Origin: Haloterrigena gelatinilytica
GTDB lineage: Archaea; Halobacteriota; Halobacteria; Halobacteriales; Natrialbaceae
NCBI RefSeq assembly: GCF_013342145.1
Contig: NZ_JABUQZ010000001.1
Coordinates: 1,178,001-1,242,000 of the forward strand
Direction: 5' to 3'
DNA: 64,000 nt
Of the stretch, positions 17,189 to 51,790 are shown piece after piece. Position numbers and translations under genes: made by a program. Under the pieces are notes generated by a model. That model was not told the origin of the DNA, did not search any database, and saw only the letters and a program-made list of their open reading frames with translations. Position 1 is the stretch's first letter. Every line of letters starts with the position of its first letter.

Positions 17189-18347
17189 ACGACGCGGACT
17201 GGAACGACCTTCGATCGCAGTGTACGGCCCTCGAGTCCGGCGCACAGCTCCTGACGCCGCTGTCCGAGCGGCCGTTCCGAATCGAGACCGACGCCGAGGA
17301 CCGAATCGTCGTCCGCTTCGCGGACAGCACCGAGGAACGCCCGCTCTGGCGCGAGCAGTTCGGCGTCTTCGACGACCGGCTCGAGGACCAGGGAATGGCC
17401 GTCGACGATCTGCAGCCGGGCGTCGAACCCTACGCGGCGGTCCTCACGCTCTCCGACTCGTACGCCGTCGAGGGCGACACGATCGTCAGAGACGAGGACG
17501 CGACGGGCGGCGAGAGCCCGTTTCTCGTCTCGGCTGCCGACGCGCGAACGCCGTCTCGGCTGCCGACGCGCGCCCGCTCTGGCGCGAGCAGTTCGGCGTC
17601 TTCGACGACCGCTCGAGGACCAGGAATGGCCGTCGACGATCTGCAGCCGGGCGTCAGACCCTACGCGCAGCGTCCTCGCTCTCCGACTCGTACGCCGTCG
17701 AGGGCGACACGATCGTCAGAGACGAGGACGCGACGGGCGGCGAGAGCCCGTTTCTCGTCTCGGCTGCCGACGCGCGAACGCCGCCGGAGCGGCTCCACGA
17801 CGACGCCCTGCTGTTGGCCCACCTCGTCGAACACCTAGACGTCGACGACCACGGCGCCCTCGAGTCGCTCGATACCGAGTCCCTGACGGACTACTACGTC
17901 CTCGCCTCGGACGTCCAGCGCGGCGCCGACGGGGTCCGCGCGACGGCCCGAGACGAACTGCTCGAGCGGCTCGGGCCCGAGCAGGAACTGCACGGCCGCT
18001 TCGGGACCGTCCGGCGGACGACCCGCACGCGCCGCCGCCCGAAGGACGACGAGACCGTTCTCGCCGCGCTCGACGAGCGCGGGATCCCCCGCGAGTGGGT
18101 CCTCGGCGTCGACCCGGACAAACTCGACGTCGTGCTGTCGGTGACCGACCTCGAGGAGGACGCGGTGTTCGACGCCGAGGAGGACGTCTACGTCCAGAAG
18201 ATCGGCGTCGACGAGGACGAGAAGTACTCGCGGCTGCAGGGCCTGGCCGACCGCATCGACGAACTCGCGGACGCCGAGGGCGAGGCGCTCACCGACGACC
18301 TCGAGGCGATCGAGGAGCGCCTCGAGGAGGCGCTGACGGCGGGGTAG
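17185..18347 (+). pseudogene. Conserved hypothetical protein gene disrupted by a tandem duplication
   Basis: The gene starts MNDADWNDLRSQCTALESGA at 17185 and ends ...LEEALTAG at 18347, but the two ends are in different frames because of a 233-bp direct duplication (copies from 17338 and 17571). Removing one copy restores a single frame of about 309 residues. The C-terminal half is acidic, with DDAL-LAHLVEHLDVDDHG and a coiled-coil-like final helix. I do not recognise the family; no catalytic motif is visible. The second copy carries extra one-base gaps, suggesting decay or poor base calling. Confidence 0.6.
17338..17783 (+). repeat. 233-bp direct tandem duplication with indels in copy 2
   Basis: Copy 1 begins CGCCCGCTCTGGCGCGAG at 17338, copy 2 the same at 17571, and both end with GACGCGCGAACGCCG. 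Copy 2 lacks single bases relative to copy 1 (CCGGCTC against CCGCTC, AGGGA against AGGA) and has a scrambled GTCGAACCC/GTCAGACCC segment. Both copies lie inside the hypothetical gene. Confidence 0.85.
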
Positions 18348-41023: not shown

Positions 41024-41353
41024 GATCGGTATCAGGGGTCCGAGAAGTGTAGTAGTTGACCAGTGAAAACACTCCAATATACTGTGTCTCCGATAACAGC
41101 TCTCGTTCGAATCCGGTAACGTGCTCTAATCAGCAGTCCCGAGTAATGTCGGACTCCGGTCTCGACGACCGTTCGCGTAGCGACGCTGCGCGAAGGCTCA
41201 ACGAGAGAGTACCGCCGGAACGGGCGAAGCCCGTGAAGGCGGCCTTTTTAGCGTAGATTTTTGCGCCGAGCGGTTCCGAACGCAGTGAGGAATCCCGAGG
41301 CGTAAAAAGGTACGTCGGGAAACATTGATGCAGGTAGTGAATAATGTGCCCGT
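41024..41353. other. Intergenic region with hairpin and repeat motifs
   Basis: About 330 bases with no gene. It holds a nested hairpin at 41212-41242 (CCGCC-GGAA-CGGGC-GAA then its mirrored arms) followed by CCTTTTTAG, and the repeat-type motif GAACGCAGTGAGG at about 41279. The open frames crossing it are artefacts of these motifs. Confidence 0.5.
41212..41249 (+). terminator. Nested hairpin with T-tract
   Basis: Outer stem CCGCC/GGCGG and inner stem CGGGC/GCCCG with a GAA loop, followed within two bases by TTTTT. It looks like an intrinsic terminator or attenuator on the plus strand, but no plus-strand gene ends just upstream, so its transcript is unclear. Confidence 0.35.
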
Positions 41354-42799: not shown

Positions 42800-44794
42800 T
42801 CATTCGTCGTCGGTCGCCTCGACGAACTCGACGCCGGTAATCTCGAATCGCGCGCCGCCGCCGTCGGCGTCGCTCGCCGCGATCGACCAGCCGTGGTGGT
42901 CGACGACGTCGGCGACGATCGACAGTCCGAGCCCCGTTCCCCCGTCGCCGGTCGTGTATCCCGGCTCGAAGAGGCGGTCGGGTTCGGCCGCGAAGCCCCG
43001 ACCCGTGTCCGCCACGTAGAACCCGTCCTCGAGCGCGCCGACGGTGACGGTGACGGCGCCGCCGTCGCGTTCGACCTGCCGGCGAGGCCGCGACTCGAGG
43101 GACGCAGAGCCGTGTTCCACGCTGTCGTCAGCGCGGTTCTCGCGCTGACTGCTTGTCGAGCCGTGCTCGACACTGTCGTCGGCCTGCGGCCGACTGCCCG
43201 TGGAACCGTGTTCCACGCTGTCCTCGGGAGCGTCAGCGACCGAGGGCTCGGAAGACGCGGAGCGTCTTCCGTCGTCCTGACGAGCGTGCGAGTCAGGGCT
43301 CGTGGAGCCGTGCTCCACGGCGTCCTCCTGAGCTTGCGAAGGAGAGCCTGTCGAACCGTGTTCGACAGCGTTCCGAAACAGGTTCTCGAGCAACTGGCGG
43401 AACTGTGCGGGGTCGGCGCGGATCGTCCGATCGTCGGCGACCGTAAGCGCGGCGTCGCCCGTGTCGACCGTCTCCCAGGCCGCCCTCGCCGCGGTCTCGA
43501 GGGCGACGGGTTCGGGCTCGAGGGCGGCCTGCCCCTGGCGGGCGAGCGTCAGGACGTCGTCGATCAGTTCCTCCATTCGCTCGTGGGACCGAGCGATCGT
43601 GCGGACGTGCTCGGGATCGTACTCCTCCTCGAGCAGGTCGAGGTAGCCCTTCGACACCGTCAGCGGGTTGCGCAGGTCGTGACTGACCACGCTGGCGAAC
43701 TCGTCGAGCTTGCGGTTCTTGCGCTCGAGTTCGCGCTCCCGTCGGACGCGGTCGGTCACGTCGTGGACGACGATCGTCCAGCCGAGAGGGCCGCCGCGGC
43801 CGTCGATGGGCGAGACCGAGAGCTCGTAGGTGCGACGCTCGGCGCCGTCGGCGAGCGAGAACTGGGCGACGTGATCGTCGCCGTCCTCGGAGGGCGCATC
43901 GATCACCGCGTCGACGTCGACCGTCGGAACGACGTCGTCGACGGGAGTACCGACGAGCGCGTCGCGGTCCCGCTCGAACAGACGCTGTGCGACGGGGTTG
44001 CTGTCGATGATCCGACGGTCGGCGTCGACGACGAGCACGCCGTCCTCGAGGTTGGCGACGACCTCGTTGCGCGCGATCGGCGCGAGCTCGAGCAGGTGGT
44101 AGCGGTAGAGGCCGAACGTGATCGCGAGCCCGGTGATCGTCAGCCCGATCGGGGTCGTCCCGATGATCTCGAGGGACGAACTCGCGACGACGGCCGACGA
44201 CCAGGGAACCGCCACCGCGACGAGGAGGGCGATCCCCTGCCAGCGGTGGAGGCTGTTGCTCCGAACTGCGACGTCGAGGACGACGATCGCGGTGGCCGCG
44301 AGACAGAGCGTCGCGTACGCGAGGTGGACGAACAGCCCGACGTTCGGCTCCGCGGTGACGACCGTCGCCGGGTCGGCCCACGGGACGTTCAGCGGGACCG
44401 TCGCCTCGAACGGCGGCCCCCACAGGACGCGGGTCCGACCGTTGAGCGCCAACAGGCCGATCATGACCAGCGGCTCGATCGCCAACAGCCCGAGTCGGCG
44501 GCGGGTGAGCCAGCGGTCCCGCCCCGTGTACTCGAGAGCGAAGACGAGAACCAGCGTCGGGATGAGGGCGGCCGACACCCACTGGAGGTCCGCCCAGCGG
44601 GCCTTCCAGACGAACGCCGTCGACTCGACCTCGAGGACGTGCGTTCCCAGCCAGAACGCGACGCTCGCCATCAGCGCGGAGAGCGGGACCGAACCGGCGG
44701 CCGGACGCGACCGCCACGCCGCGACCGCGGTCCCGACGGCGACGGCGAGGGACAGCAACAGCACGATGCTGTACGGGTTGATCATCCAGCCCAT
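42800..44794 (-). CDS. Membrane sensor histidine kinase (7TM + PAS + HisKA + HATPase) with VEHGST repeats
   Basis: 664 residues from MGWMINPYSIVLLLSLA. Seven membrane helices in the first ~225 residues form a histKA_7TM sensor. A PAS domain follows (VVANLEDGVLVVDADRRIID), then HisKA with FASVVSHDLRNPL (phospho-His372) and HATPase motifs: the N box FRNAVEHGS, the G1 box DTGRGFA and the G2 box GGTGLGLSI. Between N and G1 boxes, residues ~474-565 contain five copies of a VEHGST-like unit separated by charged spacers. No response regulator is adjacent. The stimulus is unknown. Confidence 0.9.
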   Translation of the reverse strand: MGWMINPYSIVLLLSLAVAVGTAVAAWRSRPAAGSVPLSALMASVAFWLGTHVLEVESTAFVWKARWADLQWVSAALIPTLVLVFALEYTGRDRWLTRRRLGLLAIEPLVMIGLLALNGRTRVLWGPPFEATVPLNVPWADPATVVTAEPNVGLFVHLAYATLCLAATAIVVLDVAVRSNSLHRWQGIALLVAVAVPWSSAVVASSSLEIIGTTPIGLTITGLAITFGLYRYHLLELAPIARNEVVANLEDGVLVVDADRRIIDSNPVAQRLFERDRDALVGTPVDDVVPTVDVDAVIDAPSEDGDDHVAQFSLADGAERRTYELSVSPIDGRGGPLGWTIVVHDVTDRVRRERELERKNRKLDEFASVVSHDLRNPLTVSKGYLDLLEEEYDPEHVRTIARSHERMEELIDDVLTLARQGQAALEPEPVALETAARAAWETVDTGDAALTVADDRTIRADPAQFRQLLENLFRNAVEHGSTGSPSQAQEDAVEHGSTSPDSHARQDDGRRSASSEPSVADAPEDSVEHGSTGSRPQADDSVEHGSTSSQRENRADDSVEHGSASLESRPRRQVERDGGAVTVTVGALEDGFYVADTGRGFAAEPDRLFEPGYTTGDGGTGLGLSIVADVVDHHGWSIAASDADGGGARFEITGVEFVEATDDE
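43100..43375 (-). repeat. Intragenic VEHGST repeat expansion
   Basis: Five units encoding (D/A)(S/A)VEHGS(T/A) occur at about 43110, 43160, 43205, 43310 and 43355, with variable spacers of 8-40 residues. The first unit is the genuine N box of the kinase; the others duplicate it in frame. Confidence 0.8.
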
Positions 44795-44912
44795 CCGTGA
44801 TACCTCTCTCTGCATCAACGACGGTCAAGTGTCTACCGGCCTACCACTGATGCGACCGGCCCCTCGGTCGGACGTTGCCCGCCCTCGAGGGCCCGGCCGT
44901 TCGGCGCTCGGC

Positions 44913-48072: not shown

Positions 48073-50199
48073 ATGGGCGATACCGTTCGGATTCTTCTCG
48101 TCGACGACGATCCGAGTCTCGCCGAGTTAGCCGCGACCGTTCTCGAGCGGGAGGACGACCGGTTCAGCGTCGAAACGGTCGCCAGCGCCGGCGAGGGCCT
48201 CGCGTTCCTCGCCGACCACGAGGTCGACTGCGTCGTCTCGGACTACGACATGCCCGGTCGGGACGGGATCGCGTTTCTCGAAGCCGTCCGCGCGGACTAC
48301 CCGGACCTGCCGTTTCTCCTGTTTACGGGCAAGGGCAGCGAAGCGGTCGCCAGCGAGGCGATTTCGGCCGGCGTCACGGACTACCTCCGGAAGGAGTCCA
48401 CCACCAGTCAGTACGCGGTGCTGGCGAACCGGATCGGCAACGCCGTCGAACAGTATCGAGCGAGACGCGCCATCGAGGACGCCGAGCGGAAACTCTCTCG
48501 AATCGCCGAGAACACGAACGACGTGCTCTTTCTGTTCGACGGCGACTGGAGCGAGCTGCTGTTCGTCAACTCCGCGTACGAAGCGATCTGGGGCCGGCCG
48601 ATCGACACCCTTCGGGAGGATTCCAGGTCCTTCCTCGACGCCGTCCACCCCGACGACCGGGAGCGCGTGCGTCGGTCGATGGAGCGGCTCTCGAACGGTG
48701 CGGAAGACGAGATGGAATACCGCGTGGTTCGCCCCGACGGCGAACGGCGGTGGGTTCGCGCCGAGACCAAACCGGTCTTCGACGGCGAAACCGTCTCCCG
48801 GATCGTCGGCTTCGTCCGCGACATCACCGACCGAAAGCGACGCGAGCGGGAACTCGAGCGGACGAGCGACCTCCTCGAGAAGACCGAGCGCATCGCCGAC
48901 GTCGGCGGCTGGGAACTCGATACGGACACGAGAGACGTGTTCTGGACGGACCACCTCTTCGAACTGCTGGGGTACGACGAGGTGCCCTCGCTGGAGGAGG
49001 CCCTCTCGGTCTACCACGAGGACGACCGCCCGGCCGTCGAACGCGCCGTCGAAGCGGCGCTCGACTACGGCGATTCCTTCGACATGGAAGTGCGGGCGCG
49101 ACGACCGGACGGCGAGATCCGCTGGCTTCGGGTCCAAGGCGTTCCGACGGTCGAAGACGGAACGGTCGTGACGCTCCGCGGTGCGGTTCAGGACATCACC
49201 GACCGAAAGGAGCGCGAACGCGACCTCGAGCAGGCCCGCGCGGAGTACGAGGAACTGATCAACGGGATGAACGATACGGCCTGGGTTATCGGTCCCGACC
49301 ACACGTTCCTGACGGTGAACGACGCCGCCGTCGAAACGCTCGGCTATTCGAAGGCGGAACTGCGTTCGATGCGCCCGCACGATATCGACGCGGGCCTCGA
49401 CGACGAGGAAATCACGGACCTCATCGAGGGGATGCCGGAGGACGAGGTGCAGGTCTTCGAGACGGTCCACGAGACGAAGTCCGGGGAAACGTTCCCCGTC
49501 GAGATCAGTTCCAGTATTATTTCCTACCGGGGGGAGACCGCGGTGTTGTGCATCGGACGGGACATCTCGAGTCGCAAGGAGCGCGAGGAGCAACTGGCGG
49601 AGTTCGCGTCCGTCGCGAGCCACGATCTCCGGAACCCGCTCACCATCGCTCAGGGCAGACTGGAACTGGCCCGCGAGGACTGCGACAGCGACCACCTCGA
49701 CGAGGTCGAGCGGGCACACCGACGGATGAGCGCGTTGATCACGGATCTACTGTCGCTGGCCAACGACGGCGAGCGAATCGGGGAGACGGAACCGGTCGAC
49801 CTCGACGCGTTCGCCCGGTGCTGTTGGGACCACGTCGCGACCGCCGAGGCGACGCTCGTCGTCGATCTCGACCGGACGATTCGGGCCGATCGAAGCCGTC
49901 TCCGGCAGCTCTTCGAGAACCTCATGCGGAACGCGATCGAACACGGCGGCGCTGACGTAACGGTCGCTGTCGGCGGATTCGAGGACGGCTTCTTCGTGGA
50001 AGACGACGGCGACGGAATCACCGAGACGCAACGCGAACGAGCGCTCGAGTCCGGCTACTCGACCGTCGAGGATGGAACCGGGTTCGGCCTCTCGATCGTC
50101 GAACAGGTGGCCGACGCCCACGGCTGGGACGTCCGCGTGACCGAGGGCGCCGACGGCGGCGCGCGGTTCGAGATCACCGGCCTCGAGCGAGCCGACTGA
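48073..50199 (+). CDS. Hybrid-type sensor kinase: receiver + three PAS + HisKA + HATPase
   Basis: 708 residues from MGDTVRILLVDDDPSLAELA. An N-terminal receiver domain (phospho-Asp57 in VVSDYDMPGRDG, Thr and Lys in LFTGKGS) is followed by three PAS/PAC modules ending in EC-like DITDRKRRERELE, DITDRKERERDLE and DISSRKEREEQLA (about residues 140-265, 275-390, 395-505). HisKA contains FASVASHDLRNPL with His517, then the N box NLMRNAIEHGG, G1 box DDGDGI and G2 box GTGFGLSI. No membrane spans: a cytoplasmic sensor with receiver control at its N terminus, a layout frequent in haloarchaea. Signals unknown. Confidence 0.92.
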   Translation: MGDTVRILLVDDDPSLAELAATVLEREDDRFSVETVASAGEGLAFLADHEVDCVVSDYDMPGRDGIAFLEAVRADYPDLPFLLFTGKGSEAVASEAISAGVTDYLRKESTTSQYAVLANRIGNAVEQYRARRAIEDAERKLSRIAENTNDVLFLFDGDWSELLFVNSAYEAIWGRPIDTLREDSRSFLDAVHPDDRERVRRSMERLSNGAEDEMEYRVVRPDGERRWVRAETKPVFDGETVSRIVGFVRDITDRKRRERELERTSDLLEKTERIADVGGWELDTDTRDVFWTDHLFELLGYDEVPSLEEALSVYHEDDRPAVERAVEAALDYGDSFDMEVRARRPDGEIRWLRVQGVPTVEDGTVVTLRGAVQDITDRKERERDLEQARAEYEELINGMNDTAWVIGPDHTFLTVNDAAVETLGYSKAELRSMRPHDIDAGLDDEEITDLIEGMPEDEVQVFETVHETKSGETFPVEISSSIISYRGETAVLCIGRDISSRKEREEQLAEFASVASHDLRNPLTIAQGRLELAREDCDSDHLDEVERAHRRMSALITDLLSLANDGERIGETEPVDLDAFARCCWDHVATAEATLVVDLDRTIRADRSRLRQLFENLMRNAIEHGGADVTVAVGGFEDGFFVEDDGDGITETQRERALESGYSTVEDGTGFGLSIVEQVADAHGWDVRVTEGADGGARFEITGLERAD

Positions 50200-50932: not shown

Positions 50933-51001
50933 TCTATCCGCCGACACAGCTCGCTGTGCCCGGCTAAAACGCAAATACTGAGCCTTATTATTGGCACATT
51001 G

Positions 51002-51064
51002 TCAGTTCGTACTCACGATCTTGATTACCGATACGGAGTCGACACGGTGTACACAACGGATAAA
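51002..51064. repeat. ychF 3'-end-like repeat, copy 1
   Basis: The 27 bases from 51002 match the last nine codons of ychF read in reverse (core CTCACGATCTTGAT, starting at the stop complement TCA), then GAGT, ACAC-G-GTGT and ACAACG-GATAAA. It is within duplication copy 1. Confidence 0.65.
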
Positions 51065-51192
51065 GTTGATAGCAAAGGATTACCCCGGGCGCGGTCTAAA
51101 CGGCGAAATGAATGGCTGATTCGTTCTGGTACCCGTCCAGCTCGCTGTGCCCGGCTAAAACGCAAATACTGAGCCTTATTATTGGCACATTG

Positions 51193-51257
51193 TCAGTTCG
51201 TACTCACGATCTTGATTACCGATACGGAGTCGACACGGTGTACACAACGGATAAAAG
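51193..51257. repeat. ychF 3'-end-like repeat, copy 2 (with doc promoter)
   Basis: Same sequence as copy 1, ending GATAAAAG, a TATA-like element about 45 bases before the doc start at 51303. Confidence 0.65.
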
Positions 51258-51302
51258 TTGATAGCAAGGATTACCCCGGGCGCGGTCTAAACGGCGAAAT
51301 GA

Positions 51303-51790
51303 ATGGCTGATTCGTTCTGGTACCCGTCAGTCGACGACGTTCTCGACATCCACGACGATATTGTATCGGAGTATTCCGACACGCACGCTGGCGTCCAGAA
51401 TCGTGGCGATATCGAGTTTGCCCTGAACTACGTCGAGAACGGGAGTTTCGAGACGGTACCCGAGACGATTCACGAGAAAGCGTTTCACCCCTCAGACTGT
51501 TGGTGGCGAACCACCCGTTCGTCGATGCAAACAAGCGCACTGCGCTCAACACGACGGTTGTATTCTACTTTCTCAACGGATATCGATTCACGTACGACGA
51601 CGAGATCAGGACGATTCTCAAGCAGTTCGGCACCGATCAAGCGACCGTCGATGAAGCGAAAACCGTCGAATATCTGCGTTCACACACTGAAGAGATCAAC
51701 CTCGCGGGAGAGATCGAACAATGGCGCGACGACCTCATCCAGTACGGACTGGATGAACTAACCGGTGGCTCGTCTAACCCGAACGATTAA
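51303..51790 (+). pseudogene. doc: Doc/Fic-type death-on-curing toxin gene, frameshifted
   Basis: Starts MADSFWYPSVDDVLDIHDDI at 51303. The frame is lost at a C4 run (51488-51491); one extra C restores ...HEKAFHPLRLLVANHPF into the second frame ending GGSSNPND at 51790, about 162 residues in all. HPFVDANKRTAL is the Doc form of the Fic motif (HxFx(D/N)ANKR), so the family is firm. Doc toxins phosphorylate EF-Tu in bacteria and are held in check by a small antitoxin. The small gene at 51816 follows immediately and is the candidate partner. Read as given, the gene is broken. Confidence 0.8.

What the first reader, a model, noticed from the sequence alone, without database searches (positions are those of the whole stretch)
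43100..43375. In-frame multiplication of the N box (VEHGST) within a histidine kinase
The ATP-binding N box FRNAVEHGS is followed by four more copies of the same VEHGS core with variable spacers, right before the G1 box. In other kinases only one such unit exists. The added region enlarges the ATP lid side of HATPase by about 90 residues. The DNA units differ in third positions, so this is not a recent slippage. It may be a fast-evolving module altering nucleotide binding or merely tolerated.
Basis: seen in the sequence. Interest (0 to 1): 0.58.

Follow-up and report, generated by a model that had tools for sequence, protein, structure and literature searches.

The report
In-frame double-hairpin elements in haloarchaeal genes
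The "repeated motif" in this archaeal sensor kinase is an array of very short hairpin-forming DNA insertions that read through in frame, and the same insertions are scattered through many other genes of salt-loving archaea, often at the same spot in sensor kinases.

Summary
The five VEHGS cores are real (window 43103-43369, minus strand) and in frame. They are not a multiplied protein motif. The DNA is a chain of perfect palindromes: VEHGST hairpins alternate with spacer hairpins. The stems covary, also at wobble positions, far beyond codon-resampled nulls. Units of 45, 48 or 51 bp occur at the kinase N box in 175 of 391 genomes of the class. They also sit in frame in 20 other named protein families. 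Empty sites show clean 48-bp insertions in a kinase, in glutamyl-tRNA synthetase and in cobalt-precorrin methyltransferase (CbiE). Arrays turn over quickly: orthologous kinases differ in their units, while diverged kinases of one genome share array segments up to 95% identical. A covariance model built from kinase units alone also matches double hairpins at the omega-RNA end of IS200/IS605 (TnpB) elements. Best reading: a dispersed, read-through, palindromic insertion element, with the N box as hotspot because insertion after the Asn codon re-creates VEHG. Mobility by IS200/IS605-type enzymes is inferred, not shown. Intragenic palindromic elements are known in bacteria (Rickettsia RPE, intragenic REPs). 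I found no description of this archaeal family in the library searched.

The parts
42800..44818 (-). Host histidine kinase gene (7TM-PAS-HisKA-HATPase_c); exact start codon uncertain
43121..43369 (-). Inserted array, 249 bp = 83 codons, between the N-box Asn codon (43370-43372) and the native-like tail VEHGSASLESR
   Evidence: the tail is kept, with small changes, in all four orthologs read
43348..43368 (-). N-box hairpin 1, CTGTCGAAC-acg-GTTCGACAG (9-bp stem)
43325..43344 (-). Spacer hairpin of the 48-nt class, CTCCT-tcgcaagctc-AGGAG (5-bp stem; SPSQAQED)
   Evidence: sequence; class defined
43301..43319 (-). N-box hairpin 2, CGTGGAGC-acg-GCTCCACG
43276..43297 (-). Spacer hairpin, CCTGAC-tcgcacgctc-GTCAGG
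43249..43271 (-). Extra hairpin without VEHGS, CGGAAGACGC-tcc-GCGTCTTCCG
   Evidence: the same composite spacer is in paralogs L061 and L062
43222..43245 (-). Spacer hairpin, CCTCGG-tcgctgacgctc-CCGAGG
43199..43217 (-). N-box hairpin 3, CGTGGAAC-acg-GTTCCACG
   Evidence: with the next hairpin it matches model R1 at 71.2 bits (43174-43219)
43178..43194 (-). Spacer hairpin of the 45-nt class, GTCGGCC-gca-GGCCGAC
43154..43172 (-). N-box hairpin 4, TGTCGAGC-acg-GCTCGACA
43127..43149 (-). Spacer hairpin of the 51-nt class, GTCAGCGCG-agaac-CGCGCTGAC
43103..43120 (-). Fifth core VEHGSA: native-like tail copy, not a perfect palindrome
   Evidence: last units are less often VEHGST (58 of 127) than first (117 of 127) or middle ones (96 of 102)

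Best explanation
The array is a tandem stack of very short in-frame double-hairpin insertion elements. Each unit is 45, 48 or 51 bp: hairpin 1, about 4 nt (AGC or AGCA), hairpin 2, then GACGCC or GACAGC. SHOWN: the palindromes and their covariation; the in-frame spacing; units at the N box of many kinases and in frame in other genes; clean 48-bp empty/filled sites; array turnover and sharing among paralogs within a genome; a double hairpin of the same model at the omega-RNA end of TnpB elements. INFERRED: (1) a unit enters after an Asn or Asp codon (AAC/GAC) as a DNA hairpin; in the kinase N box this re-creates V-E-H-G next to the catalytic Asn, so the enzyme survives. (2) The new unit offers the same site and homology again, so further insertion, unequal exchange and gene conversion between paralogous kinases build and homogenise arrays. 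(3) The units are translated as a hydrophilic, probably disordered loop (not seen as protein here). (4) Movement uses a hairpin-recognising single-strand transposase of the IS200/IS605 type or its RNA partner. Step 4 is the weakest (about 0.3).
For: Chain of perfect palindromes in the window. Wobble covariation in first units: V3-S3 109 of 117 complementary against a shuffled mean of 56; E3-G3 108 of 117 against 59. Spacer stems covary with up to 3-4 pair types per pair. Alignment A1: 97.8% of cells paired against 84.2% shuffled, 86 double-changed cells against 27.9. Codon resampling: both stems perfect in 36 of 79 48-nt units (mean 0.055, maximum 2) and 54 of 86 45-nt units (mean 0.1, maximum 2). 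228 of 229 unit spacings in frame. Spread 44 of 125 (family) and 175 of 391 (class). Clean 48-bp sites: kinase L243 (empty) against L230/L231, CbiE, GluRS. Non-kinase hosts named. Exchange: window against paralog K4011, flanks 61/67% and array 95% over 164 bp; against true orthologs, flanks 91-98% and array 73-87%. Nearest spacer in the same genome 31.2 of 83, nearest kinase flank 3 of 83. Model R1 hits non-coding copies at 25.7-40.8 bits, seven loci; TnpB beside two of them and Rfam sot0042 over one.
Against: No transposition event, enzyme or within-species polymorphism was seen. Among 15 ortholog pairs the closest spacers are more alike (median distance 0.067) than among 76 within-genome paralog pairs (0.133), so vertical inheritance also matters. 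In the hairpin-2 survey 72 of 73 clusters lie in the coding sense, which a blind DNA parasite would not give without strong selection. The omega-RNA loci had been preselected on hairpin 2, and sot0042 stays below its gathering score (75.2 against 88). The direct repeat at the insertion point is short and not strict in 45-nt copies.
Confidence: 0.76

Rival explanations
1. Ordinary tandem duplication of the kinase N box by replication slippage; palindromes and covariation arise later because hairpins template their own repair (quasi-palindrome correction), and gene conversion spreads them among kinases. There is no mobile element.
For: Some arrays are clearly recent tandem copies (G040:C49, seven successive 48-nt matches; G195 and G226). 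Strong sharing among paralogs.
Against: The same units sit in 20 other named protein families. At the kinase empty site the unit brings VEHGST where the host has IEHGR, so it is not a local copy.
Confidence: 0.1
2. The hairpins are selected as RNA: a translational pause, mRNA stability or bypass element (as in mitochondrial byp elements, recalled), so the peptide is incidental or skipped.
For: Base pairing is conserved at synonymous and non-synonymous sites alike.
Against: 228 of 229 spacings are multiples of three and the coding orientation prevails, which bypassing would not need. The folding energy of the window array is only z = -1.6 against codon-resampled versions. Host genes are unrelated.
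Confidence: 0.1
3. Protein-level adaptation: a hydrophilic, acidic loop repeat selected for salt tolerance or kinase regulation; palindromes are a by-product of codon usage.
For: The peptide frame is kept and the composition suits halophiles (general knowledge).
Against: Codon resampling of the same peptides almost never gives both stems. Amino acids change in step with base pairing, e.g. spacer residue 2 against residues 6-7 of the 48-nt class.
Confidence: 0.04

Closest known systems
Rickettsia palindromic elements (RPE) and intragenic CGTC/GTAG REPs (Di Nocera et al. 2013, PMC3733652, passages read)
   Same: Short palindromic DNA, dispersed, read in frame inside functional genes, also as dimers or groups
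   Different: Bacterial; REP sequences end in CGTC or GTAG tags. Here two hairpins per 45/48/51-bp unit, long tandem arrays at one catalytic motif of one gene family, and archaeal hosts. No sequence homology was tested
IS200/IS605 omega-RNA right end, Rfam RF02656 sot0042 (PMC12558985, passages read)
   Same: Non-coding copies of the double hairpin lie at this end, antisense to TnpB; model R1 from kinase units finds them
   Different: The coding copies searched have no Rfam match of this family; which is ancestral is open
Double-hairpin elements of fungal and algal mitochondria (recalled; search listing only)
   Same: Two small hairpins, compensatory stem changes, suspected mobility
   Different: Organellar; recalled as mostly outside conserved coding frames
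PARCEL (PMC2996958, abstract and first part of section 6 read)
   Same: Palindromic DNA coding tandem protein repeats, intragenomic shuffling
   Different: 25-residue amphipathic repeats of surface proteins; here hydrophilic units of 15-17 residues inside conserved enzymes

Membership tests
HisKA/HATPase_c histidine kinase (host gene) | HisKA and HATPase_c domains with N box and G1 | tested here: met
   Pfam HisKA 61.1 bits, HATPase_c 54.4 bits (aligned only from profile position 23, after the array); FRNAVEH and DTGRG present
REP / RPE intragenic palindromic elements | Dispersed palindromes inserted in frame in unrelated genes | tested here: met
REP / RPE intragenic palindromic elements | GTAG or CGTC tetranucleotide tag at one end | tested here: inconclusive
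   No GTAG tag at the unit ends; CGTC appears in hairpin arms, perhaps by composition only (sequences)
REP / RPE intragenic palindromic elements | Association with a RAYT transposase | not tested
   No search for TnpA/RAYT genes was made
IS200/IS605 omega-RNA (RF02656) | Covariance-model match over the gathering score | tested here: not met
   Best 75.2 bits against 88 in L422; no match near the window array
IS200/IS605 omega-RNA (RF02656) | TnpB gene adjacent | tested here: inconclusive
   Met for 2 of 7 non-coding copies (OrfB_IS605); not checked systematically for coding copies
Mobile genetic element | Empty and filled sites in orthologs | tested here: met
   Kinase, CbiE and GluRS, 48 bp
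Mobile genetic element | Observed movement and its enzyme | not testable with these tools
   needs populations and genetics
PARCEL | 25-residue amphipathic repeat | tested here: not met
   units are 15-17 residues and hydrophilic

The most novel reading that the evidence does not exclude
Haloarchaea carry a mobile family of protein-coding double-hairpin elements that derives from, or is moved by, the omega-RNA/right-end hairpins of IS200/IS605-TnpB transposons. It is selected at two levels at once, as a DNA hairpin and as a readable peptide, so that it can sit inside essential enzymes and repeatedly rebuild the catalytic N box it interrupts.
Probability: 0.35. Interest if true: 0.88.

Novelty: new variant of a known kind. 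Interest (0 to 1): 0.75.

Why it matters
It would be a read-through palindromic insertion family in archaea, abundant enough (175 of 391 genomes at kinases alone) to study evolution by insertion inside conserved enzymes. The many empty/filled sites and the covarying stems make testable how DNA hairpins move within coding sequence without breaking it, and whether IS200/IS605 enzymes do it. It also warns annotators: the signalling domains of many haloarchaeal kinases are interrupted, so the HATPase_c match starts only after the array.

Tried and rejected
Chance palindromes from GC-rich codon usage: rejected by codon resampling. Unusual folding energy as a proxy: weak (z = -1.6), not used. A known Rfam RNA at the array: none convincing. 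Viral origin: no phage match; six haloarchaeal plasmid records match 19-38% of the array. A structure model of the kinase piece from the single sequence was too poor to use (mean pLDDT 47). The GluRS model (32 sequences, mean pLDDT 75.9) only shows that the insert lies in a low-confidence linker, residues 89-118. Paper searches for VEHGS, VEHGST, RTQSDD, SPDSQARQD and for palindromic elements in haloarchaea gave no description; the single VEHGST paper is about a bacteriocin (title seen only). An early guess that the reverse-strand copy in a UPF0047 (YjbQ-like) gene reads through was wrong: it brings a stop.

Full report
THE FEATURE. The kinase gene on the minus strand (42800-44818) has HisKA_7TM, PAS, HisKA and HATPase_c domains. 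After the N-box Asn (codon 43370-43372) come 83 extra codons (43369-43121), then VEHGSASLESR, a tail kept with small changes by all four orthologs that were read. Read as DNA, the insert is a row of perfect inverted repeats. Four VEHGST units form 8-9-bp stems around a 3-nt loop (e.g. GTCGAAC-acg-GTTCGAC), and the spacers are hairpins of their own (GTCGGCC-gca-GGCCGAC; GTCAGCGCG-agaac-CGCGCTGAC; CCTGAC-10-GTCAGG; CGGAAGACGC-tcc-GCGTCTTCCG; CCTCGG-12-CCGAGG). In the 64-kb window 62 hairpins of at least 8 bp were found in all, and 6 of them lie in this array.

IT IS NOT CODON USAGE. In 127 multi-unit arrays from fetched loci (some overlapping; 126 distinct loci with a known genome), 228 of 229 spacings are in frame, nearly all 45, 48 or 51 nt. 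The wobble bases of Val and Ser, and of Glu and Gly, pair across the VEHGST stem in 109 and 108 of 117 first units (shuffled means 56 and 59). Spacer stems change on both sides while staying paired. On 39 diverse units 97.8% of cells pair, with 86 double changes against 27.9 in shuffles. Resampling codons for the same peptides gives both stems perfect 0.055 times per 79 units, against 36 observed (48-nt class), and 0.1 per 86 against 54 (45-nt class). Nucleic-acid symmetry is therefore what is conserved.

SPREAD. Double units occur in 44 of 125 genomes of the family (control 4 matches) and 175 of 391 of the class (control 6). In this genome 5 of 57 HATPase_c loci carry arrays, and at all five the domain match starts only at profile position 23-25. 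A second kinase in the window (near 49920) has no array.

IT IS NOT CONFINED TO KINASES. A pattern for the 48-nt spacer hairpin, with the variable stem bases left open, hits 42 of 125 family genomes (78 hits listed; control 3). Of 73 distinct clusters in the loci then held, 42 are kinases (38 by pattern, 4 by eye), 30 lie in frame in other genes (11 CbiE-type methyltransferases, 14 MBL-fold hydrolases at two sites, 4 glutamyl-tRNA synthetases, 1 unnamed), and 1 is antisense. The antisense one puts a stop into a UPF0047 gene. A pattern for the 45-nt class hits 83 of 125 genomes (control 2). Of the 30 loci fetched, 4 are N-box arrays, 15 are in other coding places (L414 judged by its ortholog L434; L413 is a kinase, but away from the N box), 7 are non-coding, 1 looks like a remnant and 3 look like chance. 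Pfam and NCBIfam name 20 host families, among them PEP-synthase-like, aldehyde dehydrogenase, DNA polymerase X, CobN, acyl-CoA carboxylase, P-type ATPase, HerA, QRPTase, Rieske and sulfatase.

EMPTY SITES. In GluRS, 3 of 80 haloarchaeal loci (Haloterrigena salina, Natrialba chahannaoensis, N. hulunbeirensis) are 48 bp longer than the rest and N. asiatica 60 bp; the others are 1050-1056 bp over the query. A pattern could read the site in 56 of the 80: 4 filled, 52 empty. The insert follows AACGCC and ends in GACGCC. In CbiE, of 30 loci fetched, 3 are filled, 25 empty and 2 were not shown by the script; filled sites such as L270 show host CAGGACGCCGTGGAACGC, with small changes, on both sides of a 30-bp core. 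In a kinase, L243 of this genome reads FRNSIEHGREDV, while its orthologs in two congeners read FRNAVEHGSTSPASQAQQDS(I/L)EHGRDDV: the unit brought VEHGST and the host kept its own IEHGR. This also explains why kinases survive: insertion after the Asn codon puts a new VEHG beside it.

TURNOVER. Of the four orthologs of the window kinase (flanks 91-98% identical), two have 3 intact units and two have mostly degenerate ones, in other orders; array identity is 73-87%. Diverged paralogs of the same genome (flanks 59-70%) share 164-171 bp of array at 92-95%. Over 126 loci the nearest spacer of another locus lies in the same genome in 31.2 of 83 cases, the nearest kinase flank in 3 of 83 (shuffles: mean 1.3, maximum 5.5 for spacers). 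Against a pure within-genome story, the 15 ortholog pairs have closer spacers (0.067) than the 76 paralog pairs (0.133); unrelated pairs are at 0.296. So both descent and exchange act, and unit numbers agree in only 6 of 15 ortholog pairs.

LINK TO IS200/IS605. A covariance model (R1) from 39 kinase units scores the non-kinase coding copies up to 50 bits and the seven non-coding copies 25.7-40.8 bits; the best window score outside the array is 19.0. In 6 genomes of the genus it finds 20-32 matches each at E up to 0.05. Thirteen own-genome matches outside the N-box arrays were read: 8 in frame in genes, 1 at a TnpB element, 2 non-coding-like, 2 probably chance. The TnpB copy (L422) overlaps Rfam sot0042 (75.2 bits, gathering 88) just behind an OrfB_IS605 gene; L436 also lies just behind one. 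PMC12558985 (passages read) says RF02656 is the haloarchaeal TnpB omega-RNA with a right-end hairpin. The double hairpin lies there antisense to TnpB. Whether it came from there or landed there is open. These loci were preselected on hairpin 2, so part of each score is built in.

MECHANISM. Shown: palindromy, dispersal, in-frame insertion, turnover. Inferred: hairpin DNA is the mobile form; recombination at repeated VEHG homology makes the N box a hotspot; the unit is translated as a loop. The loop lies between the N-box helix and the strand before G1, where alignments to solved kinases break. In the GluRS model the insert lies in a low-confidence linker.

PRIOR WORK. In-frame palindromic elements are known from Rickettsia, and intragenic REPs from other bacteria (PMC3733652, passages); that text has no 'halo', nor has RepRanger (PMC12306157, passages). 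Searches for the peptides and for haloarchaeal palindromic elements found no account; subscription journals are mostly not held. I therefore file it as a new variant of a known kind.

Noticed in passing
window 41170-41320: Intergenic stretch with several imperfect hairpins between two genes; looks like a dispersed haloarchaeal intergenic element, unrelated in sequence to the array by eye.
   Followed up: no
window 17338-17783 and 50947-51328: Two near-perfect tandem duplications (period 230, 95% and period 191, 98%), probably recent.
   Followed up: no
L163 (G408:C44, about 33500): The only array with an out-of-frame spacing (50 nt); a frameshifted kinase or an assembly error.
   Followed up: partly
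L229 (G023:C1:3179383): A unit inserted antisense in a UPF0047 (YjbQ-like) gene, where it brings a stop codon; the one clear gene-breaking copy.
   Followed up: yes
G209:C15 and C21: Array units at a contig end and with N inside: near-identical arrays appear to break or confuse assemblies.
   Followed up: no
L476 and L478 (own genome): Two non-coding-looking loci sharing GTCGGCGC-gaa-GCGCCGACgacctc hairpins, perhaps another hairpin family.
   Followed up: no
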